64,000 nt of DNA from Haloterrigena alkaliphila. Its GTDB lineage: Archaea > Halobacteriota > Halobacteria > Halobacteriales > Natrialbaceae. Below the pieces are notes generated by a model. It was not told the origin of the DNA and did not search any database. It saw only the letters and a list, made by a program, of their open reading frames with translations. A program made the position numbers and the translations under genes. Each line of letters opens with the position of its first letter. The first letter of the stretch is position 1. Positions 31,282-64,000 of this stretch are shown piece by piece. The stretch is taken from positions 2,480,001-2,544,000 of the forward strand of contig NZ_CP071462.1 of NCBI RefSeq assembly GCF_017352155.2, in the 5' to 3' direction.

Positions 31282-31635
31282 CACTGCCGGGTATCTGACT
31301 GGAGAGTAAAGGTCCGTGGCCCGCGTTTGCACCGTCGGCGTCGCGTCCGACGGCGACTGCAGGTCTTCTCGAGTCTCGATCAGGGGGTATCTTTGTATCG
31401 TTTCGAACGGTGTCGCGGTGTCGATACCCGGTTTCCGGAGTCGAATGGAACGGGCTCCGGGTCGCGCAAGTAGAATTTAGATTGTCTGTTATCGCGCAGC
31501 GATTTTTCACCTCGTTCCGTCAACGTTTGGAGACCGTCGCAAAATGATGGGTGTTGCAGCCTCTCGGTCATCCATCGAACGATTTGACCTCTCAGGAGTA
31601 TGGTGTCCCGAATCGAGGAGCTGAAATCTACCGGA
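31282..31635. other. Long intergenic region with a decayed leftward ORF
   Basis: No convincing gene. On the minus strand (31571 to 31380) a short frame reads MTERLQHPSFCDGLQTLTER, which looks like the tail of a winged-helix (PhiH1 repressor-like) protein without its DNA-binding part. It marks the start of the accessory region. Confidence 0.4.
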
Positions 31636-31655
31636 AGACACAGTATTCTGTGTCT
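31636..31655 (+). promoter_or_regulatory. Perfect dyad operator before vapB
   Basis: AGACACAG-TATT-CTGTGTCT is a perfect inverted repeat with 8-base arms, ending 14 bases before the vapB start. VapB antitoxins usually repress their own operon by binding such dyads, so this is the likely autoregulatory operator. Confidence 0.7.
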
Positions 31656-31669
31656 ACATAGATTTCTGT

Positions 31670-31900
31670 ATGCCCAGTATCACGGTCAACGTGGACGACG
31701 ACCTCAAAGAGCGAATGGAAAACCACCCGGAGATCAACTGGAGTGAGGTCACACGACAGGCCATTCAGGAGAAGATCGAGGCGCTCGAAATGATGGACGA
31801 ACTCACTAGCGAGAGCGAACTCACCGAGCACGACGTTCAGGAAATCGCCGACAAGATAAACGAACGTGGACGCAAGCGCGCCGAAGAAGAATCGAAGTAG
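31670..31900 (+). CDS. vapB: VapB-type antitoxin (ribbon-helix-helix)
   Basis: A 76-residue protein. The N-terminal ribbon-helix-helix is ITVNVDDDLKERMENHPEI followed by NWSEVTRQAIQEKIEAL; the acidic C-terminus (SELTEHDVQEIADKINERG) would wrap the toxin. It lies nine bases before the PIN gene and carries a dyad operator in front, the classic VapBC layout. Confidence 0.88.
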   Translation: MPSITVNVDDDLKERMENHPEINWSEVTRQAIQEKIEALEMMDELTSESELTEHDVQEIADKINERGRKRAEEESK

Positions 31901-31909
31901 GCTCGACGA

Positions 31910-32326
31910 ATGAAGCTGGTCATCGACGCTAACGTCGTCATCTCCGCGCTCATCGCTGATTCGAAAACGCGGGAACTCATCGTTACACTTGAATCGGATC
32001 TTTTGACGCCCGCGTTCGTCCACGACGACGTCGAGAACTACGAAGACGTGATCGTGGAAGAATTCGGGATGAAACCGGATCGAGTGGCACAGTTCATCGA
32101 CCTCCTGTTTCAGTACATCGAGGTTGTTCCTGTCGACGACTTCTATCCGGCTATCGAGAACGCGGACGCTGTGATCGGCGACACCGACCCCGACGATGTG
32201 CTCTATCTCGCGTGTGCGATCGCCAACGATGCGGCCATCTGGAGTGATGATTCCGATTTCGACGAACAGAATCTGGTCGAGAGGTACTCGACGAGCGACG
32301 TGATCGACTCCTTCGACACGTTCTAG
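31910..32326 (+). CDS. vapC: VapC-type PIN-domain ribonuclease toxin
   Basis: A 138-residue PIN protein. Acidic metal ligands are visible: Asp6 in VIDANVVISAL, the DTDPDDVLYLACAI cluster and WSDDSDF near the end. It probably cuts RNA when VapB is lost. Intact length. Confidence 0.9.
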   Translation: MKLVIDANVVISALIADSKTRELIVTLESDLLTPAFVHDDVENYEDVIVEEFGMKPDRVAQFIDLLFQYIEVVPVDDFYPAIENADAVIGDTDPDDVLYLACAIANDAAIWSDDSDFDEQNLVERYSTSDVIDSFDTF

Positions 32327-49212: not shown

Positions 49213-50033
49213 GAATGCAGGACACTGGCCCCACGACGGCGGCTGGCACAGGCGAGCAGGCATCCAGCGAGACTAACCTGGATGCCACAGCAAGCGAGCC
49301 CGTTATCGACCTCACGGGCGTCACCTTCGGCTATACGGCGACACCGGTGGTCGAGGACATCTCGCTGACCATCGAGCCAGGTGAGTACGTCGCCATCGTG
49401 GGGCCGAATGGATCGGGAAAGTCGACGCTGATGCAGTTGATGCTGGGGCTGCTTGAGCCCGACGCGGGCACAGCTCATCTGTTCGGCGAGCGCGCCGACC
49501 GCTTCGACGACGGCGAACGGGTCGGCTACGTCGCCCAGCAGGCCAGCGCCTCAAAGGAGATGCCTATCACCGTCCGCGAGGTGGTGAAGATGGGTCGGTT
49601 CCCGTACGTCGGGTTTGGCCGCCTGTCGAGCGAAGACTGGGCCATTGTCGACGACGCACTCGCGACCGTCGGGATGAGTGCGTTTGCCGACCGGCGCGTC
49701 ACGCAGCTCTCGGGTGGCCAACGCCAACGCGCGTTCATCGCGCGGGCGCTGGCGAGCGAGGCCGACCTACTCGTGCTGGATGAGCCGACCGTCGGCGTCG
49801 ACGCCGAGTCGGTCGACGCCTTCTACGATCTGCTGGCAGCGCTCAACGCCGAGGGCATCACCGTCCTCCTCATCGAGCACGACCTCGGGGCGGTTGTCGA
49901 GCACGCCGAACGAGTCGTCTGCCTGAACCGCGAGGTCTACTTTGACGGACCGACCGACGAGTTCGTGGAAAGCGACGCGCTGGCCCGGGCGTTTGGGACC
50001 GAGGCGCGGTTCCTCGCGGGGGTGGACGAATGA
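49209..50033 (+). CDS. Metal ABC transporter ATP-binding protein
   Basis: A 274-residue ATPase with Walker A GPNGSGKST, the signature LSGGQRQRAFIA and Walker B LLVLDEPTVGVD. It overlaps both the binding-protein gene and the permease by four bases, so subunits are made together. Family ZnuC/TroB. Confidence 0.93.
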   Translation: MRMQDTGPTTAAGTGEQASSETNLDATASEPVIDLTGVTFGYTATPVVEDISLTIEPGEYVAIVGPNGSGKSTLMQLMLGLLEPDAGTAHLFGERADRFDDGERVGYVAQQASASKEMPITVREVVKMGRFPYVGFGRLSSEDWAIVDDALATVGMSAFADRRVTQLSGGQRQRAFIARALASEADLLVLDEPTVGVDAESVDAFYDLLAALNAEGITVLLIEHDLGAVVEHAERVVCLNREVYFDGPTDEFVESDALARAFGTEARFLAGVDE

Positions 50034-51109
50034 GCGCTGAGGTTGCGACTACGCTCGTGACGAATGTTGGAGATCCGTTACTGCTGCTGCTCCCGATGCA
50101 GGGCGTACTCGGCGCCGTCGGCAACCTGGTCTTCGGCGTCCTCCTGTGGTTCCTGGAGCAGTGGTACTGGCTGATGGACTGGGCGTACTACTTCACGGGT
50201 CTGGAGATGCTGAACCCGCGCTACCGGTTCATGCACCGGGCGATACTCGTCGGGCTCTGCGTCGGCGTGATGGCGCCGCTCATCGGGACGTTCCTCGTCC
50301 ACCGACAGCTCGCGCTCATCGGCGACGCGCTGGCCCACACCGCCTTCGCCGGGGTGGCCATCGGCCTGTTCCTGAACGCCGTCATCGGCCTCGGCGTGTC
50401 CCCGTACCTCACCGCGGTCGTCGTGGCGATGATCGCCGCGCTGTTCATCGAACTCATCTCGGAGGTCACGGACGCCTACAACGACGTCTCGATGGCCATC
50501 GTCCTGTCGACGGGGTTCGCGCTGGGGACGACGCTCATCAGTCTCAACGCGGGCGGGCTCGCCGTCGGCGTCAACCAGTTCCTCTTCGGGAACCTCTCGA
50601 CCGTGTCGCCCCAGAGCGCAGCGATTCTGCTGGTGCTGTTCGCCGTCATCGTCGGGACGGTAGCGGTGACGCGCAACCAGCTCCTCTACGTCACCTTCGA
50701 CGAGACGGCGGCCGCCGTCTCCGGGCTCTCCGTCAACTGGTACAACCGGGTGATGGTGATGCTGACGGCGATGGTCGTCGTCGGCGCGATGCAGATCATG
50801 GGCGTCATCCTCGTCGCCGCGATGCTCGTGGTGCCGGTCGCGGGCGCGACCCAAGTGTCCCGGAGTTTCTCCGAATCGCTCGTGGTCTCGGTTGTCCTCG
50901 CGGAACTCGCGGTGTTGCTCGGCATCGCCGTCGCCTACTACGCCGGCGTCACGGCCGGCGGCGCCATAGTCTTGGTCGCCGTGGGCATCTACATCTGCGC
51001 CGTCGCGCTCGGCAAGGTTCAATCTGCCCGTGGAGAACAGGCCACGCCCGACATGGGTAGCATCAAGGCCGACAGCGTCGATGTCGGCGCGGGGACGGAG
51101 GATGACTGA
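50030..51109 (+). CDS. Metal ABC transporter permease (ZnuB/TroC type)
   Basis: A 359-residue permease with about nine membrane helices. GTFLVHRQLALIGDALAHTAF is the ABC-3 family signature and MQIMGVILVAAMLVVPVA is the conserved late helix. Extra hydrophobic N-terminal segment (residues 15-60). Its last base starts the regulator gene. Confidence 0.92.
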   Translation: MSAEVATTLVTNVGDPLLLLLPMQGVLGAVGNLVFGVLLWFLEQWYWLMDWAYYFTGLEMLNPRYRFMHRAILVGLCVGVMAPLIGTFLVHRQLALIGDALAHTAFAGVAIGLFLNAVIGLGVSPYLTAVVVAMIAALFIELISEVTDAYNDVSMAIVLSTGFALGTTLISLNAGGLAVGVNQFLFGNLSTVSPQSAAILLVLFAVIVGTVAVTRNQLLYVTFDETAAAVSGLSVNWYNRVMVMLTAMVVVGAMQIMGVILVAAMLVVPVAGATQVSRSFSESLVVSVVLAELAVLLGIAVAYYAGVTAGGAIVLVAVGIYICAVALGKVQSARGEQATPDMGSIKADSVDVGAGTEDD

Positions 51110-51894
51110 TGGTCACAGCCAATAATGGCGACTCGCCAAGCGGCGGTCGTGCCCGAAGTGGCAATGGAGGTCAGTCGGACGTGTCGGCAGGAATGCTGAG
51201 CGCGGTCATGGAAGACTACATCAAGGCGATTTACGCCATAGAAAGCGACAGCGGCGAGCGAGTGTCGACCTCAACTCTCGCCGACCATCTCGAGGTCACC
51301 GCGCCGACCGTCTCCTCCATGCTGAAAAAGCTCGAAGAACGCGGCCTGATCGACCGCAAGGAGTATAAGGGTGTGACGCTCACGGAGGAGGGCGAACTCG
51401 TCGCTCTCGAGATTATCCGGCACCACCGTCTTCTCGAAGCGTTCTTGACCGAACTGCTCGACTACGATTGGGCCGACGTCCACGACGAGGCCGACAGACT
51501 TGAGCACCACGTCTCCGAGGAACTGACCGACCGCATCGCCGAGGCGCTGGGCAACCCCCCAGTCGATCCGCACGGCGACCCGATCCCCGACGCCGACCTG
51601 TCCTTTCCCGCTGAGAGCGAAACCACCCGCCTCGCCGACGCCGACGAGGGCGAGCGCGTGACCGTCCGGCGTATTCGCCACCAAGGCGATACGGAACTAC
51701 GTTACCTCGCCGACGCCGGCGTCCGTCCGGAGGTCGAGCTCACGGTAGTCGACGTTGCGCCGTTCGGGATGGTGACCGTCGAGACGCAGGCGGGCGAGCA
51801 GAGCCTTCCGGAGGAGATCGCCCAGCTCATCGAGGTCGCCCCGGCGGCCGCCACGGAGGATAGGGCGGCTCACACCTCGGAGAAGGAATCCTGA
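51109..51894 (+). CDS. DtxR/MntR-family metal-dependent repressor
   Basis: A 261-residue regulator. Residues about 28-95 are the winged helix (LADHLEVTAPTVSSMLKKLE), then the metal-binding dimer domain (EIIRHHRLLEAFL, EADRLEHHVSEEL), and a C-terminal FeoA-like SH3 domain from about 180. Last gene of the transporter operon, so it probably represses the dyad at 48094 when metal is plentiful. A 28-residue low-complexity N-terminus precedes the fold. Confidence 0.9.
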   Translation: MVTANNGDSPSGGRARSGNGGQSDVSAGMLSAVMEDYIKAIYAIESDSGERVSTSTLADHLEVTAPTVSSMLKKLEERGLIDRKEYKGVTLTEEGELVALEIIRHHRLLEAFLTELLDYDWADVHDEADRLEHHVSEELTDRIAEALGNPPVDPHGDPIPDADLSFPAESETTRLADADEGERVTVRRIRHQGDTELRYLADAGVRPEVELTVVDVAPFGMVTVETQAGEQSLPEEIAQLIEVAPAAATEDRAAHTSEKES

Positions 51895-52374: not shown

Positions 52375-52593
52375 ATGGGGAATCTAACGAAGAGTACACG
52401 GCACAGTCCAGCCCTTGAAATTGTATATAGAGTGGCTGAAATGGAGGAACGGGATCCGCTGGACTTGCCACCTATCTATGATAGCGTTGACCCTGAGGCA
52501 CTGGACGATCTTGCTGAATCAAATGAGATCCAATTCGAGTATGTTGGACACAAAATAACTGTAGATAGCGGCACGATCAGGATCGATCAGTAA
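52375..52593 (+). CDS. HalOD1 output-domain protein
   Basis: A 72-residue stand-alone HalOD1 domain: SPALEIVYRVAEMEERDPLD followed by LPPIYDSVDPEALDDL and the ending FEYVGHKITVDSGTIRI. These domains are widespread in haloarchaea and thought to act in signalling; function is unknown. ATG 52375 is used for its promoter spacing; a longer in-frame start exists at 52312. Confidence 0.75.
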   Translation: MGNLTKSTRHSPALEIVYRVAEMEERDPLDLPPIYDSVDPEALDDLAESNEIQFEYVGHKITVDSGTIRIDQ

Positions 52594-52651
52594 GCACGCT
52601 CATCCTTGCGGCTGATTCGGTCAGATGTGCTTGCACAAAAGATCCTCTCGG

Positions 52652-52680
52652 TGCTGACTACATCCTCTGTATCCAGCACG
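52652..52680 (-). repeat. GTGCTG-ATACAG dispersed repeat, copy 3
   Basis: Read on the minus strand: CGTGCTGGATACAGAGGATG then TAGTCAGCA. It matches copy 4 at 55078 over the full length and copies 1 and 2 over the core. Confidence 0.55.
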
Positions 52681-52754
52681 ACTGTTAAAACAAACCCCTA
52701 CATTAGGATTTCAACGGGGATGATTGTTACTACATACCAGGGGAATGAGCGATG

Positions 52755-53030
52755 CTACCCGTCACTACGATCGTCGTTGGGTGACACTGAGTTGGCCGCC
52801 TCAATGAGCGATTCTCCGAGCGCGCGCATCCCGTCAGCGTCAGTACGCACGGTCACCTGCCGATTCTCACCGTCACGAGCCGCGTTAAGAACAACCGCGA
52901 CGTCTGCCGATGAACTCCCAGCAGGCGCAACTACCCGCGCTTGCGACAACGTTGGTCGAGAATCCTCACTAACGAGTTCGGTCCGGTCAATCACTGACAT
53001 GAGCTTCGGAAGTGTCTCGTCGTAGGTCAC
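52755..53030 (-). CDS. Small hypothetical protein of the recombinase cassette
   Basis: A 91-residue acidic protein with a central hydrophobic stretch (SSADVAVVLNAARD) and no recognised motif. It overlaps the recombinase stop by four bases, so it is the third gene of the AbrB-recombinase operon. Confidence 0.6.
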   Translation of the reverse strand: MTYDETLPKLMSVIDRTELVSEDSRPTLSQARVVAPAGSSSADVAVVLNAARDGENRQVTVRTDADGMRALGESLIEAANSVSPNDDRSDG

Positions 53031-53815
53031 GCTGCCTCACCCCCACTGGTGGCGGACAGATCGTCTCCCTCATAGTCGTCAATTGCGTCGTTCGGGGCGG
53101 CGTCGAGAAGCGCACGCGCGGTACCGTCATCTCGGCATGACCGCGCTCGGTCCTCAACGTGGTTGACCCACCGCTCGATCGCTCCGCGGGAGAGGCCAGT
53201 CTCGTCTGCGATCGAACGATATGACACGCCGTCGGCGCGCATCGCGAGCGCATCCACAACAGTGTCGAACCACTCACTTGCCACCAAATACTCGCGCGCG
53301 TCGTCGAACTCGAGACCAACCGGTGGCCGGGAGTTCCACATTGCTCGCTGTTCGCGGTCGTTCACGGCCTCACGAGCCTTCCTGATCTCCTCGCGTTTGA
53401 TCGCAGTCTCGACCGTACGGCGAACACCGTGCTCCATACTGTCGACATTAACGTCTCCAGCGACGAACGCGAACTCGGCGCCGCCCGAGGCAGCTGCACG
53501 CCGCCATTCCGCGAAAAAGTCGTCGCGGGCCAGTCGGGAGTCGTCCCAGGCGACCACGTGGTCGTACTCTCCAGTTCGCACCCGATCAATCGCGTTCAGG
53601 ATCTCGTCGTTATCGTCAATTCTCGAGTCATCCTTGTCCCGTGATAGTATGCTAAATCCGGTGTGGACACCTAGGTCGACGACATCGTATTCATCGGCAA
53701 GATCGCTCGCGAGCTCAGGTACCTGTTTGCGCTGGAGGCGGAGGCTGGCACCATCCTCGTCGCCTTGTGATCGTCGAATGACCGCGAGCGCCTTGCTGGT
53801 GGTAGCGTCACTCAT
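53027..53815 (-). CDS. Serine recombinase (resolvase family)
   Basis: A 262-residue protein. The catalytic Ser16 lies in AVIRRSQGDEDGASL, followed by AWDDSRLARDD, the resolvase Arg region. A C-terminal helix-turn-helix (SYRSIADETGLSRGAIERW) binds DNA. ATG 53815 is used; the longer frame covers the AbrB gene. It probably inverts or excises DNA. Confidence 0.85.
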   Translation of the reverse strand: MSDATTSKALAVIRRSQGDEDGASLRLQRKQVPELASDLADEYDVVDLGVHTGFSILSRDKDDSRIDDNDEILNAIDRVRTGEYDHVVAWDDSRLARDDFFAEWRRAAASGGAEFAFVAGDVNVDSMEHGVRRTVETAIKREEIRKAREAVNDREQRAMWNSRPPVGLEFDDAREYLVASEWFDTVVDALAMRADGVSYRSIADETGLSRGAIERWVNHVEDRARSCRDDGTARALLDAAPNDAIDDYEGDDLSATSGGEAA

Positions 53816-53996
53816 CGGTGATTGTGATTTCGAGTGTGTTCCCGCTCTTGATGTTCCACTCAACACGGGCTCCCGCGAGGTCCATCGCCTCGGCGATGCC
53901 CTTAGGAACAGTCGTTCGGTACTGCTCAACAGTTCGGTCTTCACCGTCGGAGTTGGTGGTGGTACTCGTGGTCTTCGTAACGGTCGTCTTGGGCAT
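53808..53996 (-). CDS. AbrB/MazE-like swapped-hairpin protein
   Basis: A 62-residue protein with VEQYRTTVPKGIAEAMDLAG, the SpoVT-AbrB fold, preceded by a Thr-rich arm. It overlaps the recombinase start by eight bases and lies next to twin palindromes at 54003 and 54027. Likely a repressor of its own operon, or an antitoxin. Confidence 0.75.
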   Translation of the reverse strand: MPKTTVTKTTSTTTNSDGEDRTVEQYRTTVPKGIAEAMDLAGARVEWNIKSGNTLEITITDE

Positions 53997-54002
53997 CAGT
54001 AG

Positions 54003-54036
54003 TTAGTGCTAAAGATTGCACTACACTTAGTGCTAA
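54003..54036 (-). promoter_or_regulatory. Twin TTAGTGCTAA operators of the AbrB operon
   Basis: TTAGTGCTAA occurs at 54003-54012 and 54027-54036; each is a palindrome of TTAG and CTAA. They lie within 41 bases of the AbrB start, overlapping the expected promoter, and are spaced 24 bases, so dimers could bind the same helix face. Confidence 0.6.
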
Positions 54037-54251
54037 TTACTGGTGTCTCGGAACCCCCGGGTAGTGGGACACACTGCGCAACCACCTACCACCAGTTCCT
54101 CTGTTTCTAACCATTTTGACTAGAGCCATCATCGCGGCTCACTTCCTCAAGTATGGTAAGTAGTTCAAGACTTGTTGTTCACCTAATAGTATCAAGAAAT
54201 CTCTTTTATATGTAGCTCACAAAGAAGCCTCTAACTACACTGGACACCAGT

Positions 54252-55007
54252 ATGGCTGATCAGGAAGAATACCGTGATGCAGCCTCCAAGTCCCTAGCTC
54301 AGGCTAATGAAGCTGAAACCTGGAGAGAATGGGTCTCCATCTACAGGGATTTTTTCAAAGCAATTCCTGGCCAGGTCAGAGACCGAGACGCCCCTGTAAC
54401 TGCCATCCTGATTCTAATCACCATAACCGTCTTCATACTCCAATCAGTCCTCTACCTCTACATAACCGAGAGTTTTCCCATCGGAATCCTCGTCATCCTC
54501 ACCCAACGCAGCGCCCTAACAGGTCTGACCGCCTACCTCTTCGTCGACTTCCCGTGGATAGCATGGCCTCTCGCAGAATTCCTCCACAAAGGAGTAGGCC
54601 ACTTCGTCGCCAATATCGCTCTCCTAGCGCTGTTCGGGAAAATAATCGAATCCCGATTTCAGACCCGTTACTACATCCTATGGTTCGTTGGAGTCGCGAT
54701 AATCGTCAAACCCATAGATGCACTTATCACTCTTTCAACGAGCCCGAAACCAAATGTCGCGGTATACGGTATCAGCGACTTCGTCTACTCTCTTGGAATC
54801 TACACTGTAATGACAGTATACAGTTCTGAACACGGAGATGAGATAGAATATCTGGGGATGCTGGTAGGAGTGGCTGCTATAATCCAGATCCTCGTTCAAG
54901 CGACGACGGCGGTACACCATATGTCAATACAACCCCTAAACACCGCTCACCTGTTTGGCGGACTCCTGGGAATAGTAGTATTTGGTATCGTCAGGAAGCA
55001 CGAATAG
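54252..55007 (+). CDS. Rhomboid-like intramembrane protease
   Basis: A 251-residue protein with about six membrane helices. The rhomboid pattern is present: LHKGVGHFVANIA (His112, His117, Asn121), the Ser175 in GISD (canonical GxSG/A is altered) and His233 in NTAHLFGG. Active-site Ser and His are in place, so it may be an active protease. It sits alone between two accessory operons. Confidence 0.75.
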   Translation: MADQEEYRDAASKSLAQANEAETWREWVSIYRDFFKAIPGQVRDRDAPVTAILILITITVFILQSVLYLYITESFPIGILVILTQRSALTGLTAYLFVDFPWIAWPLAEFLHKGVGHFVANIALLALFGKIIESRFQTRYYILWFVGVAIIVKPIDALITLSTSPKPNVAVYGISDFVYSLGIYTVMTVYSSEHGDEIEYLGMLVGVAAIIQILVQATTAVHHMSIQPLNTAHLFGGLLGIVVFGIVRKHE

Positions 55008-55077
55008 CGGGATCGAACTGGCAAGTTCTACCAAACAGTAGTTTCTGTCCGTCGGTGATAATTGGAATCTCCCTGTT

Positions 55078-55105
55078 GCTGACTATACCCTCTGTATGCA
55101 GCACG
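55078..55105 (-). repeat. GTGCTG-ATACAG dispersed repeat, copy 4
   Basis: On the minus strand it reads CGTGCTGCATACAGAGGG then TATAGTCAGC. It is almost the same as copy 3 and lies just downstream of the Argonaute relic. Confidence 0.55.
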
Positions 55106-55152
55106 CCATTCCTATCAGATTCAGAGGGTTTGAACAGAGCCAAATTAGACTA

Positions 55153-55455
55153 TCAGCCGTTTAATAAGACAGTCCGTCCTTGTGTGTCGAAGTCCTTGAC
55201 GTCTACGGCGATCGCCTTATCTGGAGTCGCGAATCCATCCTCCTGATTGACGGGTCGGGCAGGAGCCTGCTTGCACACTTCGACCACGTCGTAGGAGATA
55301 CCGCGGTTATCCAGGAACTCAAGGGCCGACTCAATTGGGTCGTTCATGAAGCCGTCACGATGGATTGCAATATGGTCGGGCGCGTTGCCGCGGCGCTCTT
55401 CGTACCCTAACAGCGACTGCCTGGCGATCCGGCAGAAGGCCGGTGTGAAAATGCG
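55153..55455 (-). pseudogene. Argonaute PIWI-domain relic (NgAgo-like)
   Basis: From about 55455 the minus frame reads SLLGYEERRGNAPD, then HIAIHRDGFMND, then LEFLDNRGISYDVVEVCKQ and ends at a stop after TVLLNG. This matches the PIWI domain of the Natronobacterium gregoryi Argonaute, including the HRDG motif and the following hydrophobic strands. An in-frame stop lies directly upstream, and the C-terminal end is missing, so it is a remnant of about 90 codons. An ATG at 55347 would give only 64 residues. Confidence 0.75.
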
Positions 55456-55525
55456 TTCCTATCGTGAAACAAATAATGGTTGGATAGCTATCACTCAATC
55501 ACGATAGTTCAGTACGTCCTGAATC

Positions 55526-56635
55526 ATGCCATTCACAGCAACCCGCGATGACGAACGTGTTCTTCCCCACGAAGCAGAATCTTCTGATGCGCTAGTCTGT
55601 CCCATCTGCGATGACGCGATGAGTGTTGTTGACGAGCATCGGCGACGCGGTAGTTTCGTTGCTCGGCACTTCCGTCATCAGACTAACGATGAATGCTCAG
55701 GTGAGTCAATTCCGCATCTACGAATGAAGGCGATCGCCTTCTCGAAACTCGTAGCCACCTACCCTGATGCGGACGTCAGTATCGAGAAATCAGTCGGTCC
55801 ACGCCGAGCAGATGTTCTCGTCGAATTTCCAGAACCACGGTCTCCTCTCGGGAAGGGAATCGCCGTCGAGGTTCAGCACCGGAACAACTCGAAAGACCTC
55901 TTTGCGACTGACCAAGATTACTACGACGAAGGTTTCAGTGTCCTCTGGCTATCCGAACAGCACTATGCCGAGTACGACGTCGCTATTGATCATGTCCAGC
56001 CCGTTTGGCCGAAAGCTCTTCCTCAGCTTCGAGGGTACGATGGGCTATCATGGCCAGTTGTAGACGAGCCTTCGACTCCTGAGATCCAAATTCCACTCCC
56101 CCCTGACTACCTGGATCACCACCAGTCATCGATTCGCGACGCCTTCGAACGGGGGCAGCGCCAGCGGTCAAACAGGTCTTGGACGACGCATCAGCAAGTG
56201 TGGCTAAGTAAACCACATCAACCCACCAACCGATCTCTGCAATTCGCTGAAGCACCTGCTGGAGGGTTCTACCTGAAGCTGAGTAAAGGCAAGAAAGGAC
56301 AGCGCCCCGAATTTGTCCACGTTCCGCTTAGAGAAGGTGACATCGACAGTTTTCAGCATGCCCCAGATATACTCAATTCGGCACTCGAAAAAAAGCTGGT
56401 CGAGGGAGAGTGGCAGGATCTGGATGTTTGCTGGATCAAAGCGTACGCCGATCCCATAACGGCCTGGCTGAAAGTCATTTCTACCCCTGATAACGGCTAT
56501 CTCTTAGAACTGGGAAAGAAGGATGCGAACGGGCAATCAAATCGGGTAAAAACGGCGTTTACGCCCTCAGAGAGGTTTCACTACCGCTTTCGTGACTTCT
56601 TCGATAGCCTCGAGCCGTACCTCTCGAAAGAATAA
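55526..56635 (+). CDS. CoiA-like nuclease domain protein
   Basis: A 369-residue protein. A zinc-finger-like VCPICDD, the HFRH box, ESIPHLRMKAIAFSKL and RRADVLVEF ... AVEVQH form the CoiA-family PD-(D/E)xK pattern in the first half. The second half is beta-rich without motifs. CoiA proteins occur with competence and mobile elements; this one may nick or repair DNA of the element. Distinct from the neighbours; start ATG 55526. Confidence 0.75.
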   Translation: MPFTATRDDERVLPHEAESSDALVCPICDDAMSVVDEHRRRGSFVARHFRHQTNDECSGESIPHLRMKAIAFSKLVATYPDADVSIEKSVGPRRADVLVEFPEPRSPLGKGIAVEVQHRNNSKDLFATDQDYYDEGFSVLWLSEQHYAEYDVAIDHVQPVWPKALPQLRGYDGLSWPVVDEPSTPEIQIPLPPDYLDHHQSSIRDAFERGQRQRSNRSWTTHQQVWLSKPHQPTNRSLQFAEAPAGGFYLKLSKGKKGQRPEFVHVPLREGDIDSFQHAPDILNSALEKKLVEGEWQDLDVCWIKAYADPITAWLKVISTPDNGYLLELGKKDANGQSNRVKTAFTPSERFHYRFRDFFDSLEPYLSKE

Positions 56636-56726
56636 CTCACTCTGGGCATCAATAGTCCAAGACGAACCGAGAGTCCTTGACGCCAACTATTGACGAGTTG
56701 CTTAGGGATGTCTGACAAGGGTTTAT

Positions 56727-56758
56727 CCTATAGGTTTCCCTATATCTGAGCATATAGG
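56727..56758. promoter_or_regulatory. CCTATAG repeats upstream of parA (putative parS/operator)
   Basis: CCTATAGG (56727-56734) and the dyad CCTATAT-6-ATATAGG (56739-56758) end nine bases before parA. The same units recur after the operon (57996-58038). They overlap the promoter, so ParA or its partner may repress here and also use them as a centromere. Confidence 0.6.
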
Positions 56759-56767
56759 AATACATAA

Positions 56768-57619
56768 ATGAGCGCAAGAGTGGCCAGTTTCCTCGATAAA
56801 GGAGGAACAGGAAAGACCACCAGTATCGCACATCTCGGCGTCGCACTTTCTGAGCAAGGACACGACGTCCTGCTCATCGATCTTGCCGGTAAACAGGGAG
56901 ACCTCGCAAAATCATTCGGCGTCTGGCAGGGCACACAGGCCGCCATCGAGAACGACGACGCCTGGCCGAACATCTCGACAGTCTTCGACGACGCCTGGGA
57001 GACGATCGTCGAAAAGCTCGGCGACGAGGCTGTTGAGGAACTCATCGTGCAGACCGACGAGGGCGTCGATCTAATCCCGGCACATCCTGGACTGGATACG
57101 CTTGACGCGGAACTTGCGAACATCGACGATGCTTCCGACCGGTACTCCCGGTTCAAGCAATTCCTTGACGACTACATTGACCCGCTTGGCTACGACGCCG
57201 TACTGATCGACCTGCCAGGAATGACGACGAACGTGACCTACAACGGACTCTGGGCAGCACAGAACGTGCTCGCCCCCGTCGAAATGGGACCGTTCGAGGC
57301 CGAACAAGTTGGCGCGTTACGTGACGATCTCGCGAAGGTCGAGGCCAACTTCAACATCAATGTCGACTTGGCGATGGTCCTCCCGAACAAAGTTGACTCA
57401 CGTACGAAACTCGCTGGCGAGTATCTTGATGCCTATCGCGAGGAGTACCCTAGAGCAATCGCGCCAAAGTATGTTCCCTCTTCGCAAGACATCCGGAACG
57501 CAACCGAGCAGGGACAGTCAATCTTTGCGCTGGACAATCCGAGTGGAACAGCCCGTAAAGCACGTGACGCATATCGTACCAACGCTGAAGCGCTCATAGA
57601 ACGCGTCAGTGGTAACTAA
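56768..57619 (+). CDS. parA: ParA-family partition ATPase
   Basis: A 283-residue P-loop ATPase. The Walker A is KGGTGKTT (11-18), with LLIDLAGKQGDLAKSF and VLIDLPGMTTN as the deviant switch regions. It segregates plasmids or integrated elements with its downstream partner, two bases later. Start at ATG 56768. Confidence 0.9.
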   Translation: MSARVASFLDKGGTGKTTSIAHLGVALSEQGHDVLLIDLAGKQGDLAKSFGVWQGTQAAIENDDAWPNISTVFDDAWETIVEKLGDEAVEELIVQTDEGVDLIPAHPGLDTLDAELANIDDASDRYSRFKQFLDDYIDPLGYDAVLIDLPGMTTNVTYNGLWAAQNVLAPVEMGPFEAEQVGALRDDLAKVEANFNINVDLAMVLPNKVDSRTKLAGEYLDAYREEYPRAIAPKYVPSSQDIRNATEQGQSIFALDNPSGTARKARDAYRTNAEALIERVSGN

Positions 57620-57621
57620 CC

Positions 57622-58002
57622 ATGGATGACGAAATTGAAGAGCTGAAACAGCAGACCAGCCAAGGAGACCGATTGGACGAAGTGAGTGCAGAACAGAAAC
57701 GGAATGACCTCAAAACCGCGATTCTTGAAGAACTGGAGAAAATCGACGAAGGAGATCAGCAGAAGGTCGTCAGTGTCTGGGACGGGCCAATGGCAGCATT
57801 AGTTCGTGCTCTCGAGAACCATCCCGAGCATCTGGATGATGTCGGTCATCGTCTTCAGGACGAGCTCGATGTCGACCAGGAGGACGTTGATCGGAGCGAG
57901 GTTATTCGGCTTGCGCTTCGGCTTGGACTTGGAACCGCCGCACCGGAGGCTATGAAAGCGACGCGCGAGGCGGTCAGCGATAAGGCGACAAAAAACCTAT
58001 AG
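57622..58002 (+). CDS. Small ParA partner (ParB-like, ribbon-helix-helix end)
   Basis: A 126-residue acidic protein with an N-terminal coiled coil (MDDEIEELKQQTSQG) and a C-terminal DRSEVIRLALRLGLG helix pair like ribbon-helix-helix DNA-binding proteins. Two bases after parA and next to the CCTATAG repeats, it is the best candidate for centromere binding. The family is not certain. Confidence 0.6.
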   Translation: MDDEIEELKQQTSQGDRLDEVSAEQKRNDLKTAILEELEKIDEGDQQKVVSVWDGPMAALVRALENHPEHLDDVGHRLQDELDVDQEDVDRSEVIRLALRLGLGTAAPEAMKATREAVSDKATKNL

Positions 58003-58038
58003 ATGCCTCTATATCGTATCCTATAGGAAAACCTATAT
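57996..58038. repeat. CCTATAG repeats downstream of the par operon
   Basis: CCTATAG (57996-58002), CCTATAGG (58020-58027) and CCTATAT (58032-58038) lie at the end of the operon, matching those before parA. The flanking set suggests a centromere split on both sides. Confidence 0.6.
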
Positions 58039-58156
58039 CCACATATTCTCGCCGTATATTGTCTCTCAGCCCATTCTAACTATAGATACAAGTGCTCGGA
58101 GAGGATCCGTCAGTGGGCTAGGGTATTTACCTGACCAATCAAAATCTCCACTTGCG

Positions 58157-58936
58157 ATGAGTCAATCAAACGCATCACCCACCGCTGACGATCACGGCTT
58201 CCACGATGGTGGAGGCCCCCTCGAGCTACCGGTGGAACTCGACGCAACCAAGATCAAGAACAGGTTTGTAAACGAGCCAGAGTACAAAATCCAGGGCCAG
58301 ATCCCAGTCGAGCAAGGATCCGACCTTGAAGTGGACCTGTCTGCTCTCTCCAGTACCAGTGGTTGGTACGTTGATCCTGACGCCGCCCTCTACATTCAGG
58401 GGACGGGCTACACGCAGGGGACGATAGACAGCTATCACGTCAAAATTCAACAAGTCGCGACGCAAAGGCCGCGTATCGTCCCGATCGAGTCAGCAAAGGT
58501 CCCGGTCGCCAGCATGGACATCGAAAAAAGTCTGAGCGATGTCGGTGTGTCGGCTTCCATCCCTGGATCCGCCGTCGTTGATCTCGTCGATCGCTACGTC
58601 ACTAGCGCGACCGAAGTCATCACGCAGAAACTGCTCAACGGTCGTGGTGGAATCGTTGACCTCCTCACTCACGCTGACGGCACCCGTGTCAGCATTGACG
58701 TCGAGAAACCCTACGCTGGATGGCAACACGACGTGCAGCAAATCAAAAACGACCACGATCTCCAAGCGCTTGACCCCGAAGACTACGAGCACGTACGCGC
58801 TATGGTGCGACCCGTTCTCGGTGCCACTTGGGGAGATAGCGAGTATGAGGCGAGAATAGAAGTGCCCGACCCAGACCTCGACCGCCTCTACGAACTCGCA
58901 GACGACGAGAGCTACGAAGCTCTTACTCGAGTCTGA
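58157..58936 (+). CDS. Hypothetical protein downstream of the partition genes
   Basis: A 259-residue acidic protein with an N-terminal beta-rich region (YIQGTGYTQGTIDSYHVK) and a helical C-terminal half. No motif recognised. Same strand as parA, after a 154-base gap, so it may belong to the same element. Confidence 0.6.
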   Translation: MSQSNASPTADDHGFHDGGGPLELPVELDATKIKNRFVNEPEYKIQGQIPVEQGSDLEVDLSALSSTSGWYVDPDAALYIQGTGYTQGTIDSYHVKIQQVATQRPRIVPIESAKVPVASMDIEKSLSDVGVSASIPGSAVVDLVDRYVTSATEVITQKLLNGRGGIVDLLTHADGTRVSIDVEKPYAGWQHDVQQIKNDHDLQALDPEDYEHVRAMVRPVLGATWGDSEYEARIEVPDPDLDRLYELADDESYEALTRV

Positions 58937-59200
58937 CCGCTACGCCTCCTGCTGATCTACGGTTCTATTGGGAGAAATTGATCTTGGTGAATCGAACAAA
59001 TGAAGATGGGTTTCCGAAATGTACGTAGGCGTATGCATGTATCGGATCATACGGTCTGGCTGCCGTATTGATGTCAGAGTGCCCATGAACCTAGCGGGAT
59101 GTGTTTCTCCTTCTGAAACTGCCCATCCTCGACGCGGTTCAAAATGGCTTGAGGGACAGAAACCCCATAACTAGTGGATGTTCGTTCGGTAGGCCCCGTT
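58937..59200. other. Gap before the Dpd-like operon
   Basis: 264 bases between the converging ends of the hypothetical gene at 58157 and the leftward operon. No gene and no clear repeat are seen. Confidence 0.4.
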
Positions 59201-60358
59201 TCACATTGATTCTTGAACGAATTCGGGTGTGACCCGCTCTTGGTTTTCCTCAACAGCAGAGTCCAATACGCGGCTACAGATAGCAAGGGCTTGGCGAACG
59301 TTACCCTGTGAACGTTGTAGGATCACATCCAACGCTTCATCAGTAAACGGGTCGATCGAAGAAGTTTCGGTCGGCCCATTGCGTTCTCGACTGAGGTAGT
59401 CTGATACCAGGTCGTTCAGATGCTCGTTTGTGAGGGGTTTCAGAGCGACCTCCTCGCCGATCCGCTCGCTAAAAGCATGATATTCACTCATGACGTCTTG
59501 CCAGACCTCGGGAGCACAGCCAAACAACATACACAACCCGGAACTATTCTGGTCCATCAGGTGTCGAATACTGTTGAGCGTGGCCTGCTCATTCTTTGGG
59601 CTGAGACGTGCGATACTCTCGAACTCGTCGACGAAAACGAATACGCCAGTGTAACCGAGTTCGAGTAGCATATTCTTGAAAGCGGTGAACGCCCGGACGC
59701 CCATCGTATCGTCATCGAGTGCGCTGTGGATTTCCATCTCCTTGCGCTGCTCATACCGGATACCCTCTGCGGTCAACCACTGCCAAGCATAGAGGTTGGT
59801 GTCTTCGTACACCATGTGTACGATCGCACGAGCAAAGTCGGCAAAGTGAGTCACATCGCTTAACCGTCGAACCGCCTCCGGGACGATCTCAGAGAGAAGG
59901 ACGTCTCCCTCATCGATGAGCGATTTCATTGCGCTCGCGCTAATTGGATTCGCATCTGTGACGTCACGAGCAACCGAGGCGAGGTACTCGTAGGCCAACT
60001 CTTGGACTCGATTGAAACCTAGGTCGTACACGAACTCATGATAGATGTCGAGAAAGCCCTCTCCCGGTTGAGCGACGTACCCAACGACGACATCGTCCCG
60101 GTCCCGTAACAGAGAGCGGGTATATTTGAGCGTATGCGACTTTCCGTTGCCGTATTTCCCAGTGATAACGAGATGCTTAGACTTTCCAGTCGAAAGCATC
60201 GTGGAGACTGTGGAACTAATCTTTTCGGAGACGTGTTGTTGACCACAGTATATTTCGGGGTCCTCTGCGGGAACCGGGCTGTACGGAAACGGATTGGCCT
60301 CGAGGTCGTACTGTGAGTAATCTTGCTGTTCGTCTGAAATGTCGAATGCGTCGGCCAT
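59201..60358 (-). CDS. AAA/STAND-type ATPase of the Dpd-like operon
   Basis: A 385-residue Orc/Cdc6-like P-loop protein. Walker A is GKYGNGKSH (67-75), Walker B is VFVFVDEFESIARLS, and RSQGNVRQALAICSRVL is a sensor-2-like element. It resembles DUF2791-type ATPases of BREX and related defence systems. Its ATG shares one base with the preceding gene's stop, so it is the last gene of a tight operon. It could be the motor for restriction or modification, with role inferred from context. Confidence 0.7.
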   Translation of the reverse strand: MADAFDISDEQQDYSQYDLEANPFPYSPVPAEDPEIYCGQQHVSEKISSTVSTMLSTGKSKHLVITGKYGNGKSHTLKYTRSLLRDRDDVVVGYVAQPGEGFLDIYHEFVYDLGFNRVQELAYEYLASVARDVTDANPISASAMKSLIDEGDVLLSEIVPEAVRRLSDVTHFADFARAIVHMVYEDTNLYAWQWLTAEGIRYEQRKEMEIHSALDDDTMGVRAFTAFKNMLLELGYTGVFVFVDEFESIARLSPKNEQATLNSIRHLMDQNSSGLCMLFGCAPEVWQDVMSEYHAFSERIGEEVALKPLTNEHLNDLVSDYLSRERNGPTETSSIDPFTDEALDVILQRSQGNVRQALAICSRVLDSAVEENQERVTPEFVQESM

Positions 60359-61254
60359 TATGTATCCTCCTGGTGGAACGTGACGTCGCGGTCGTGGACC
60401 GCGAGGTAGTAGTATTGTTTGTCGTACAATTCAACGCCAGACATCACCTGCTGTGTCGACTGCGACGTGGAGACTAACGTTCCCTCATCTGCCACGGAAA
60501 TCCGCTTGATTCCGAGAGCAGAATCTTTAGCCTCCGTATCCATTGGAGCTCCCGAAAGCTCGAGTTTGCCGACGTTTTGCTGGCAGAGAGCGACTAGTGC
60601 CTCGTCGAAACCCGCACGTGAACATCCAATTCGTTCACAGACTTCCTCCCGAAGTTTCGGTATCGACAGATAGCGCTGTCGTAAATCTACGCCTGCTGTC
60701 TGTTCGAGGTGGTCATAAGCGTCAAGCACCACGAAAGGGAAGTTGTCCGGAATGCTGGATTGGCTGGTCAAATAGTAGCTCCCAGTGAAGGCATTCCGCT
60801 GAACGCGACCTAATCGTTCGGCCCAGTCGCCGACGACCTCTATGCCGGTCTGGTTGAAGGAATAGGGTGTATACTTCTGGTCTTCTTCCAGGCTCTCCAG
60901 AAGGGTATCGAGGTCTGTAGGTTCGAGTCGCTCCAGAACCTCGAGAAATGTTCCGTAGTGGGGGCTACGAGTTGCGAGGATTGAACTCACCTGCTGCCAG
61001 CTCTCATCCCGAATCGCCTCTAAGAAGGCTTCGCCGATAGCGGTGGTCCCGTAATAGGAATCGTCATCTGATTCGCGTTCGTCCAGCAGATCGATTCGTT
61101 TCGCTTCTAGAACCGTTTCTCGCGCTCGCCGATGACTTACATCGAGAGCGGTCTCGAGATCCTCTGTCGTTTTCTCGTCGTCTTCACAGGCATGTGTGAG
61201 TTCAACCAAACGACTCAGTGTGACTGGACGGATCGTCGCTCGTTCGTCACTCAT
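60358..61254 (-). CDS. Winged-helix-like protein of the Dpd-like operon (DpdG candidate)
   Basis: A 298-residue protein. The N-terminus holds a helix-turn-helix-like part (LETALDVSHRRARETVLEAK) and a second one lies near residue 205 (CERIGCSRAGFDEALVALC). Four-base overlap with the transglycosylase and one-base overlap with the ATPase show that the genes work together. Size and layout recall DpdG, a protein of the Dpd cluster, but that identity is tentative. Confidence 0.6.
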   Translation of the reverse strand: MSDERATIRPVTLSRLVELTHACEDDEKTTEDLETALDVSHRRARETVLEAKRIDLLDERESDDDSYYGTTAIGEAFLEAIRDESWQQVSSILATRSPHYGTFLEVLERLEPTDLDTLLESLEEDQKYTPYSFNQTGIEVVGDWAERLGRVQRNAFTGSYYLTSQSSIPDNFPFVVLDAYDHLEQTAGVDLRQRYLSIPKLREEVCERIGCSRAGFDEALVALCQQNVGKLELSGAPMDTEAKDSALGIKRISVADEGTLVSTSQSTQQVMSGVELYDKQYYYLAVHDRDVTFHQEDT

Positions 61255-62285
61255 GTGAGCCTCCTCACTTGCTGTTTTGCGGTCTCATAGGCCCGTCTAG
61301 TAACTTCGTTGCCCTGGAAGCGAAGATCGAGATAATTCTCGACATCCCGATCAGACTCAGCTATGTATTTGAATCGTCGAAGCTCCGTTGCAAGCGCCCA
61401 GAGGTTATGCTGAGTGAGTGCAGTTCGGTCTTCCCGAATGTCTTCTAAACTCCGTTGACCACAGATCGGACAGGGGCAAGGCAACCGATCTAAGTCCTCG
61501 ATGTTGTGGAGTTCTTCCCCTCCAAAACCAGGTATCAAGTAATTACGATTGCCGGCACTTCTGATGAACGCCGACGAGTCGAAACTATCGACACCGAGAT
61601 AAAGTAAAAGTGGTTGATAGACTAATCCGCCGAGACCATAGACGTGTAGATGCTTCTCCGTCGCATTTCTTGCAGCAAGTACCAACTTTGTCACCTTTTT
61701 GTAATCTGTCCGGATCGGCACCATGCTCCCGAGTGCATATCCATCAAAATCTCCGCGGTTCTCTAGGTACTGGATATTGTTACGAATCGTTTCTGGATCG
61801 TACCCGTGAACGCTCGCGAAGAGTAGAGCATCACCAGTATGGAGATCACTTGCCTCGAGAGCAAACTCGATGCTTCGGTCGATACGCCGTTGATTCTCTG
61901 CTGCACGGTTTTCTCTGGACAAAGGGATGTCAATTGTCCCGTGTATGTCGCTATCTAATTTCTGTTGAGTTTTGATCGTCTTTTCCGGCGTAGTGTCGAT
62001 CTCCTGTTCCGAAAAATCGAATCCACCGCTATCAGCGAAGATGATGGTGTCTTCTGGAACGTCCATCTCTTCGCGGAGGGCCACACCATTCGTTAGCCGA
62101 TTCCACATCGGGTCCCGGTTCCGTATCGATCGAGCGTTAATCATCGCCGCGGAAAACTCCGGGATAGTGCCGACGTACTTGGGAGTGTTATCACTCGATC
62201 GCTTCCCCACGTTCCTAACTGGGAAGAGAACTGGTGTATCCAGTTCTCCGTGGGGAAGATCGAGTTTCCGTTGTCTGTACAGCAT
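61251..62285 (-). CDS. tRNA-guanine transglycosylase paralogue, DpdA-like
   Basis: A 344-residue TGT-fold protein. Both catalytic aspartates are present: Asp85 in FADSGGFDF (general base) and Asp236 in GVDSFDSS (nucleophile). The zinc site is Cys270, Cys272, Cys275 (CPCPIC) and His293. It lacks the PUA-type domain of archaeal tRNA TGT and lies with a helix-turn-helix protein and an ATPase, so insertion of a 7-deazaguanine into DNA (DpdA) is more likely than tRNA modification. Which base and substrate is not shown. Confidence 0.78.
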   Translation of the reverse strand: MLYRQRKLDLPHGELDTPVLFPVRNVGKRSSDNTPKYVGTIPEFSAAMINARSIRNRDPMWNRLTNGVALREEMDVPEDTIIFADSGGFDFSEQEIDTTPEKTIKTQQKLDSDIHGTIDIPLSRENRAAENQRRIDRSIEFALEASDLHTGDALLFASVHGYDPETIRNNIQYLENRGDFDGYALGSMVPIRTDYKKVTKLVLAARNATEKHLHVYGLGGLVYQPLLLYLGVDSFDSSAFIRSAGNRNYLIPGFGGEELHNIEDLDRLPCPCPICGQRSLEDIREDRTALTQHNLWALATELRRFKYIAESDRDVENYLDLRFQGNEVTRRAYETAKQQVRRLT

Positions 62286-62382
62286 CCCTCCCGCTCGGAT
62301 ATGCTGTTATCTTACTTAGATAATGGGGCGATAGACGATCAGAAGAGGTGAAGTATAGAGGTTCGCCTTAGTAATTTCTCGT

Positions 62383-64000
62383 CTAATACTTCTCGAAGGC
62401 CATCTGAGTAGGTTCCTCTTCTACACGACGACAGAGGCCCTCAATCGCTTCAGGTTCCAGTGATTCGACACTGTCTATACGGTGTGCGAAATTCTTCATA
62501 TAGTGTCCTTTCAACCCTACTACGATTGTGCCGTGGTTTTTCGCGTCTTCTGTGCGGGCAGGCACTGACACGATATTATCGAACTGGTCGTCGACGAGTT
62601 CCCGGTTGAAGACGACTCCAATACGATCAGAACGAACGTCCTGGACCATATTATCGATGTCAATGCTGGTGTAGTAATCCTTCCCGAGAGTGAAGAAGAC
62701 TACATCGTAGTCTGACTCGTTCAGCACCTGCTCTAAGTCGGCCTGAATGCTGAGTTGTTTAGATCGCTCCCTGATGTCGGCAACGCCCATCGAGCTGAAC
62801 GTCACTTCGTATGGCGGCAACGGTTCGTCCTCGGAAACGAGGCCGAAGCCTGCACTTATGAAGTACCGCTCGACATCGTGACCTTCTCCTTTGAGCCGTC
62901 TAACCGCTTCCTTCACGAACTCCTGCTGTCGGCCCGTGTAGAGATCCTTGGCGTTGATTGCAGGAACATTATCGCGCTCCAAGAGCTCTTCTCTCGAGAA
63001 TTGGAGCGTCTCTTTATCATCGAAGACGGGTGCACCTTCGGGGATGTCCTTCGAGCCAGAACATTGGTCGATAACCAAAATGTCGAGCCCATCCTGGACG
63101 TTGATTTTGGGTGGGTGAGGCAGGAAGTCATCCCCAGCTATGTAATTCTCTCCGCACGCTTCCAAAGCATTCTGGCGCAGTTTCGATGGATCTTGGAACG
63201 TCTGGATTGTGCAGTTACTTTCCTCCACGGCATCTACGATGTGCTCGTCGATTTCTCCGTCAGGTGTGTGGAGGAACACCTTCTGGTATCGCTCTGCTTG
63301 CTGACCAAGGTTTTCAGCCATGCGACTCCGGGCAAGCGAAACGCCGGTGGGGGTCTTGTCCCACCACTCTCGTACACCGCCGGCGTCCAAAACGCCAACT
63401 TCGGCAACTGGGAGATCATGCACCTGCTGCCAGAAGTCAGGATGCTCGGCTCGAAGGTAGTCCTCGATAGTTTCGTAGCCGTTCAGAGATGCCGTACCTC
63501 GAGTTCCGATGAGGATTTTCGGTAGCTCGTCGGTGAATTCGTCGTAGAACCGTCGGGTGTTATGGAATCCACGTCGACGGTTGCGGTCGTTACCACGGAA
63601 GATACAGACCTCAATACTGTTCTCGGTACAGATCGAGCAATCGCACTTCTCCCAAGGTCGGTTTTGCAGTGTACGCTGGTACTCTTCTAAGAGGTCTTCG
63701 TCGCCGATCCACGTCGCGTAATCGCGAACGACGGTCCAAATCGCGTCATAAGTAGTTTCAGGATCGTCGTTTTCAAGGATGGTAGTCATACGCGGGAAAG
63801 GCTCGAACTCCTGCTGTGCGACGGTTAGTAGATCAGAATACTCTTCGAAGCTAACCGGGTCCTCGGGATCGTCTTTCCGAAGAAGCTTGACCAGCTTTCC
63901 TCGAAGATTGTCGCTGAAACTCGCTTGTAGCTCTCGGGCGTACTCGAAATCGTCTCTAAAAGCGGTTTCGACTTCTTGGAGTAGCGAAGCGTCGTATTGC
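62383..64000 (-). CDS. Second TGT paralogue fused to a DUF6884-type domain (5' end beyond window)
   Basis: The open frame runs through the right edge without a stop, so the ATG at 63789 is probably internal; at least 538 residues are visible. A TGT-type zinc site, KCDCSICTENS followed by GFHNTRRFYDEF, lies near the left part of the visible sequence, so the catalytic barrel should be off the edge. The C-terminal 250 residues carry LVIDQCSGSKDIPEG, NAKDLYTGRQQEFV and FISAGFGLVSEDEPLPPYEV, a DUF6884-like (YaaA-related) domain. It lies 97 bases before the DpdA-like gene in the same orientation. Confidence 0.7.
   Translation of the reverse strand, partial: QYDASLLQEVETAFRDDFEYARELQASFSDNLRGKLVKLLRKDDPEDPVSFEEYSDLLTVAQQEFEPFPRMTTILENDDPETTYDAIWTVVRDYATWIGDEDLLEEYQRTLQNRPWEKCDCSICTENSIEVCIFRGNDRNRRRGFHNTRRFYDEFTDELPKILIGTRGTASLNGYETIEDYLRAEHPDFWQQVHDLPVAEVGVLDAGGVREWWDKTPTGVSLARSRMAENLGQQAERYQKVFLHTPDGEIDEHIVDAVEESNCTIQTFQDPSKLRQNALEACGENYIAGDDFLPHPPKINVQDGLDILVIDQCSGSKDIPEGAPVFDDKETLQFSREELLERDNVPAINAKDLYTGRQQEFVKEAVRRLKGEGHDVERYFISAGFGLVSEDEPLPPYEVTFSSMGVADIRERSKQLSIQADLEQVLNESDYDVVFFTLGKDYYTSIDIDNMVQDVRSDRIGVVFNRELVDDQFDNIVSVPARTEDAKNHGTIVVGLKGHYMKNFAHRIDSVESLEPEAIEGLCRRVEEEPTQMAFEKY

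What the first reader, a model, noticed from the sequence alone, without database searches (positions are those of the whole stretch)
55153..55455. Relic of an NgAgo-like Argonaute
About 90 codons reproduce the late PIWI region of the Natronobacterium gregoryi Argonaute: a LLGY lead-in, HIAIHRDGFMND with the catalytic-type HRDG, and the YDVVEVCKQ strand. It is flanked by stops and by a dispersed repeat. It shows that this locus once carried a prokaryotic Argonaute, close to a CoiA-like nuclease and later defence genes.
Basis: partly seen in the sequence, partly recalled or inferred. Interest (0 to 1): 0.75.

Follow-up and report, generated by a model that had tools for sequence, protein, structure and literature searches.

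The report
Remnant of an NgAgo-type Argonaute gene
A 252-base scrap of a DNA-defence gene (an Argonaute of the NgAgo type) survives in a salt-loving archaeon, and an intact copy at the matching place in a related genome shows that two deletions destroyed it, so it is a well-documented but ordinary case of a defence gene being lost.

Summary
On the minus strand, 55207-55458 (84 codons, no stop or frameshift) is a piece of the PIWI domain of an NgAgo-clade long-A Argonaute, from the glutamate finger (NgAgo E704) through HRDG (D738). It is 83-85% identical to intact genes in Halorhabdus amylolytica and genome G269, about 45% to NgAgo, and is the only Argonaute sequence in the genome. The interpretation also holds and can now be shown directly. 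G269, from another family of the same order, carries the same island (about 97% DNA identity) and, between the same flanks, a complete module: coiA, CARF-HTH regulator, DUF2797, Argonaute, ORF250. In the window one deletion joined the coiA promoter to Argonaute codon ~702; a second joined codon ~785 in frame to the end of ORF250, giving the 101-codon open frame. Relic-specific changes are mostly replacing (6 silent, 13 replacing), as expected without selection. The relic is an ordinary pseudogene fragment. The more interesting by-product: every NgAgo-clade locus checked (15 of 15), NgAgo included, has a DUF2797 gene directly upstream; the other haloarchaeal Argonaute clade has none (0 of 15).

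The parts
55207..55458 (-). Argonaute relic: 84 codons of PIWI domain, equivalent to codons ~702-785 of the 884-aa intact gene and NgAgo ~704-788; keeps the DEDX glutamate (NgAgo E704) and third aspartate (D738), lacks D663 and D863 equivalents
55459..55461 (-). TAG stop created at deletion junction A (Argonaute codon ~702 joined to coiA upstream DNA); junction at 55459/55460
55153..55206 (-). C-terminal codons and stop of the gene called ORF250 in G269, joined in frame to the relic at deletion junction B (55206/55207)
54143..55142 (.). ~1 kb insertion absent from G269, between ORF250 end and the resolvase gene; carries the rhomboid gene and ends in the dispersed repeat
54252..55007 (+). rhomboid-family membrane protease gene inside the insertion
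   Evidence: (PF01694 7e-11)
55077..55142 (.). dispersed haloarchaeal repeat (IS-end-like), at the end of the insertion
55526..56635 (+). CoiA-like gene, 95.4% identical to the coiA beside the intact Argonaute module in G269
53027..53944 (-). resolvase-like gene (longest frame) at the other flank of the Argonaute site, shared with G269

Best explanation
This is a dead fragment of a long-A, NgAgo-clade Argonaute gene, left in place by two deletions in an island shared between haloarchaeal families. The ancestral module, as seen in G269, was coiA and a CARF-HTH gene on one strand, then DUF2797, Argonaute and ORF250 on the other, with DUF2797 and Argonaute overlapping by 4 bp. Deletion A removed the CARF-HTH gene, DUF2797 and the first ~700 codons of Argonaute, joining codon ~702 to the coiA promoter region. 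Deletion B removed the last ~100 codons of Argonaute and most of ORF250, joining codon ~785 in frame to the end of ORF250. A rhomboid-plus-repeat insertion is a further difference. The fragment has no MID or PAZ domain, half the catalytic tetrad and no start codon before HRDGFM, so it makes no working Argonaute. Shown: homology, synteny, junctions, loss of the rest of the gene, and an excess of replacing changes. Inferred: the order of events, that it is not expressed, and that the ancestor worked as a guided nuclease against foreign DNA.
For: Homology: PADLOC pAgo 7e-35; closest intact genes 83-85% aa. Whole genome: no Piwi family match and no other Argonaute piece. Synteny: window 55460-64000 matches G269:C1 304744-296202 at 96.6%, the relic matches G269 309105-308854, window 52587-54142 matches G269 312504-310950; between these G269 has the full module. 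Junctions read base by base; in-frame fusion to ORF250's tail (DAQGWTVLLNH in G269, DTQGRTVLLNG in the window). Selection: relic-specific changes 6 silent to 13 replacing, against 7 to 2 in G269 (Fisher p=0.04); an earlier comparison gave 11:14 against 24:7 in the MAG; the relic branch is several times longer than its sister. The genome keeps only a single, distant DUF2797 copy.
Against: The relic frame is open over 84 codons plus the 17-codon tail, which a long-dead gene would not need to be. The relic is only 86% identical to G269's Argonaute, while the flanks are 91-99%: dS 0.41 for the relic against 0.19 for coiA. So the destroyed allele was not a very recent sister of G269's, and recombination may have homogenised the flanks. 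The rate tests rest on few changes.
Confidence: 0.94

Rival explanations
1. The fragment did not decay in place but was brought in by recombination or transposition as a short piece of a foreign Argonaute gene.
For: It is more diverged from G269's Argonaute (86%) than the flanks are (91-99%); an insertion with an IS-end-like repeat lies 64 bp away.
Against: It lies in the right order and orientation exactly between the same flanks as the intact gene, and one end is joined to the tail of ORF250, the gene that follows Argonaute in G269. A random capture would not do this.
Confidence: 0.05
2. The 64-101 codon frame is a small functional gene, for instance a decoy or fragment protein derived from PIWI.
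For: The frame is open and fused in frame to ORF250's end.
Against: The first start codon is inside the conserved HRDGFM motif, a stop lies directly upstream, no other genome searched has the same short frame, and relic-specific changes are mostly replacing.
Confidence: 0.02
3. Assembly chimera joining two loci.
For: Not examined with reads; none are available.
Against: There is only one Argonaute match in a 99.8% complete, three-contig genome, and a related genome, G080, holds a different Argonaute remnant beside the same resolvase/ORF250 block, so erosion at this site happens independently.
Confidence: 0.01

Closest known systems
NgAgo (Natronobacterium gregoryi Argonaute) and its clade of long-A prokaryotic Argonautes
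   Same: Same PIWI segment, alignable end to end; glutamate finger E704 and catalytic D738 retained
   Different: Only 84 of ~885 codons remain; no MID, PAZ or N-terminal domain, and two of the four catalytic residues are gone; ~45% identical to NgAgo itself and 83-85% to Halorhabdus and G269 genes
APAP systems (haloarchaeal long-A Argonaute with phospholipase D partner AgaP, PMC11442185)
   Same: Haloarchaeal long-A Argonautes in mobile or defence contexts
   Different: The relic groups with the NgAgo clade, whose upstream neighbour is DUF2797; that the other haloarchaeal clade is the PLD-associated one is my reading of the paper, not tested
Truncated or fragmentary pAgo genes noted in surveys (PMC2743648, PMC6299218)
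   Same: Patchy distribution, horizontal transfer, and fragmented or truncated members
   Different: Surveys noted or set aside such sequences; here the intact syntenic counterpart and the deletion junctions are identified

Membership tests
NgAgo-clade long-A prokaryotic Argonaute (as an origin) | PIWI-domain homology closest to this clade | tested here: met
NgAgo-clade long-A prokaryotic Argonaute (as an origin) | Lies where relatives carry the intact gene | tested here: met
   G269 synteny
Functional long-A Argonaute | Complete DEDX catalytic tetrad | tested here: not met
   Only E704 and D738 equivalents lie in the fragment; no other piece in the genome
Functional long-A Argonaute | N, PAZ and MID domains in one frame with PIWI | tested here: not met
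NgAgo-clade operon | DUF2797 gene directly upstream | tested here: not met
   Present in 15/15 clade loci but not in the window; the genome's only DUF2797 is far away at C1:2743369
APAP (pAgo-PLD) system | AgaP phospholipase D gene next to ago | not tested
   No PLD profile was run on the neighbours; the relic falls outside the other haloarchaeal clade in the tree

The most novel reading that the evidence does not exclude
Beyond the relic: NgAgo and its relatives are not stand-alone Argonautes but one half of a dedicated two-gene system with a DUF2797 protein, a probable zinc-binding and possibly GIY-YIG-like nuclease partner. In one subclade it stands beside a divergent CARF-HTH regulator, and in the window and G269 it is cargo of a Dpd-type DNA-modification island from which it is repeatedly lost.
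Probability: 0.55. Interest if true: 0.6.

Novelty: new member of a known kind. Interest (0 to 1): 0.3.

Why it matters
The relic itself is one more example of defence-gene turnover in haloarchaea, unusually well documented because intact and broken versions sit in the same island context. Chasing it exposed a near-perfect link between the NgAgo clade and an upstream DUF2797 gene. None of the open-access papers searched describes that link, and the NgAgo papers looked at study the protein by itself. If the partner is needed for activity, it could bear on why NgAgo's behaviour has been hard to pin down.

Tried and rejected
Pfam Piwi on the window genome and on the fragment: no match at threshold, because the piece is too short. 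Search of IMG/VR viral contigs: none; phage records gave one weak hit to an uncultured phage from human faeces. Same-genus genomes: no Argonaute and no shared locus DNA except the repeat. I first judged coiA unrelated to Argonaute because relatives of coiA on plasmids lie beside other genes; G269 overturned that for this locus. Repeat as the cause of the deletions: rejected, it sits at the end of the rhomboid insertion, not at either junction. Foldseek on the DUF2797 model: no significant match; the VIA-align re-ranking put Slx1 GIY-YIG entries on top at Z 5.0-5.8, which is only suggestive. G310's match to the Argonaute N-terminus is probably a different protein sharing that domain.

Full report
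What is there. The minus strand at 55207-55458 encodes 84 codons that align without stops to the PIWI domain of haloarchaeal Argonautes. The best matches are intact genes: Halorhabdus amylolytica (83% aa, 86% nt), genome G269 (84.5% aa, 86% nt over all 252 bases), a Natrialbaceae MAG (77%) and a Halocatena salina plasmid gene annotated 'Piwi domain-containing protein' (73%). NgAgo itself is about 45% identical (that L022 is NgAgo rests on its 887-aa length and my memory of the sequence). Among profile families the relic hits PADLOC pAgo at 7e-35; among solved structures it hits CpAgo and CbAgo around their catalytic aspartate. The reversed window gives no comparable match.

Which part of Argonaute. 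Aligned to NgAgo, the relic starts exactly at E704, the glutamate of the DEDX tetrad, and includes D738 in HRDG (D663 and D738 are the residues mutated in PMC9040764; E704 and D863 as tetrad members are from my own knowledge). The D663 and D863 equivalents lie outside it. No other Argonaute piece exists in the genome, and none of five same-genus genomes has a relative.

How it came about. A class-wide search found G269, in another family of the same order. G269 carries the same island: window 55460-64000 matches at 96.6%, and the next 16 kb at ~99%. Its order is coiA (95.4% identical), a CARF-HTH gene (PF19810 2.5e-41, PF22665), DUF2797, Argonaute and ORF250, then the resolvase block shared with window 52587-54142. 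In the window, G269's 4.1 kb between the coiA promoter and Argonaute codon ~702 is missing, and the relic's first base abuts the coiA upstream sequence with at most a base or two of ambiguity. On the other side ~1.8 kb is missing, and Argonaute codon ~785 is joined in frame to the last codons of ORF250 (relic tail DTQGRTVLLNG against ORF250 DAQGWTVLLNH). This explains both the 101-codon open frame and its non-Argonaute tail. A ~1 kb stretch with the rhomboid gene and the dispersed repeat is present only in the window, between the end of ORF250 and the resolvase block.

Is it dead. Changes specific to the relic, polarised with Halorhabdus, are 6 silent and 13 replacing; for G269 they are 7 and 2 (p=0.04). 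With the MAG as comparison the pattern is the same. The relic branch is about 4.6 times its sister's length in the tree. The frame has no start codon before the M of HRDGFM. The relic is more diverged from G269 (dS 0.41) than coiA is (dS 0.19), so the lost allele was not a near-identical twin of G269's; recombination has probably made the island a mosaic. This does not change the origin.

Erosion elsewhere. A second Natrialbaceae genome, G080, has the same resolvase/ORF250 block with a different Argonaute remnant, its last ~42 codons. G226 and G349 also hold only pieces, and G186 and G184 hold interrupted genes. Loss of Argonaute is therefore recurrent in the class.

By-product. All 15 NgAgo-clade loci of the class-wide search (L098-L112) have a DUF2797 gene directly upstream, and none of 15 loci of the other haloarchaeal clade (L113-L127) does. 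Of eight loci measured closely, the two genes overlap by 4 bp in four, by 31 bp in two, and are 42 bp apart in NgAgo and its Natrinema ejinorense relative. In Natrialbaceae the six genomes with NgAgo-clade Argonautes each have a second DUF2797, against 1 of 119 others (Fisher 1.5e-9). A model of NgAgo's DUF2797 neighbour (mean pLDDT 76) puts Slx1 GIY-YIG nucleases at the top of the VIA-align list at Z 5.0-5.8, while Foldseek finds nothing significant. Of the papers held, only two mention DUF2797, neither with Argonaute. The survey of haloarchaeal Argonautes describes PLD partners for about 44% of them.

Verdict. Observation confirmed, interpretation supported and sharpened. The relic is an ordinary gene remnant; the DUF2797 link is the part worth following.

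Noticed in passing
L098-L112 (upstream of Argonaute), L022:6137-7021: A DUF2797 gene lies directly upstream of every NgAgo-clade Argonaute checked (15/15), including NgAgo, and of none in the other haloarchaeal clade (0/15). Fold comparison weakly suggests a GIY-YIG-like domain.
   Followed up: partly
L132:6795-7622, L056:3941-4768, L020:5364-6182: A divergent CARF-HTH (HFX_2341/DUF6293, Csa3-like) gene stands next to DUF2797-Argonaute in the Halorhabdus/G269/MAG subclade only.
   Followed up: partly
window 55460-64000 and on to G000:C1:2560000: The island is 97-99% identical in DNA to G269, a genome of another family, which suggests recent transfer between families; GC drops from ~64% to ~52% at about 52000.
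   Followed up: partly
window 61251-63789: DpdA appears split and reordered: a TGT-like protein (61251-62285) and, upstream of it in transcription, a protein with the DpdA C-terminal part fused to a DpdC/DUF6884-like part (62383-63789); large helicase-like and PLD-like genes follow in L033.
   Followed up: no
L128:7935-9135: A second Argonaute relic (codons ~418-545, broken) in G226 lies beside DNA ~80% identical to window 31535-32325.
   Followed up: no
window 55463-55514: Nested palindromes (CTATCGTGA...TCACGATAG around GATAGCTATC) just upstream of the coiA start, possibly an operator.
   Followed up: no
window 49502-51858: The metal ABC transporter/regulator block has an 88% identical second copy at G000:C1:2829155-2831516.
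   Followed up: no
window 55077-55105, 52652-52680: A ~66 bp haloarchaeal repeat, mostly intergenic in many plasmids, resembling the end of an insertion sequence.
   Followed up: partly
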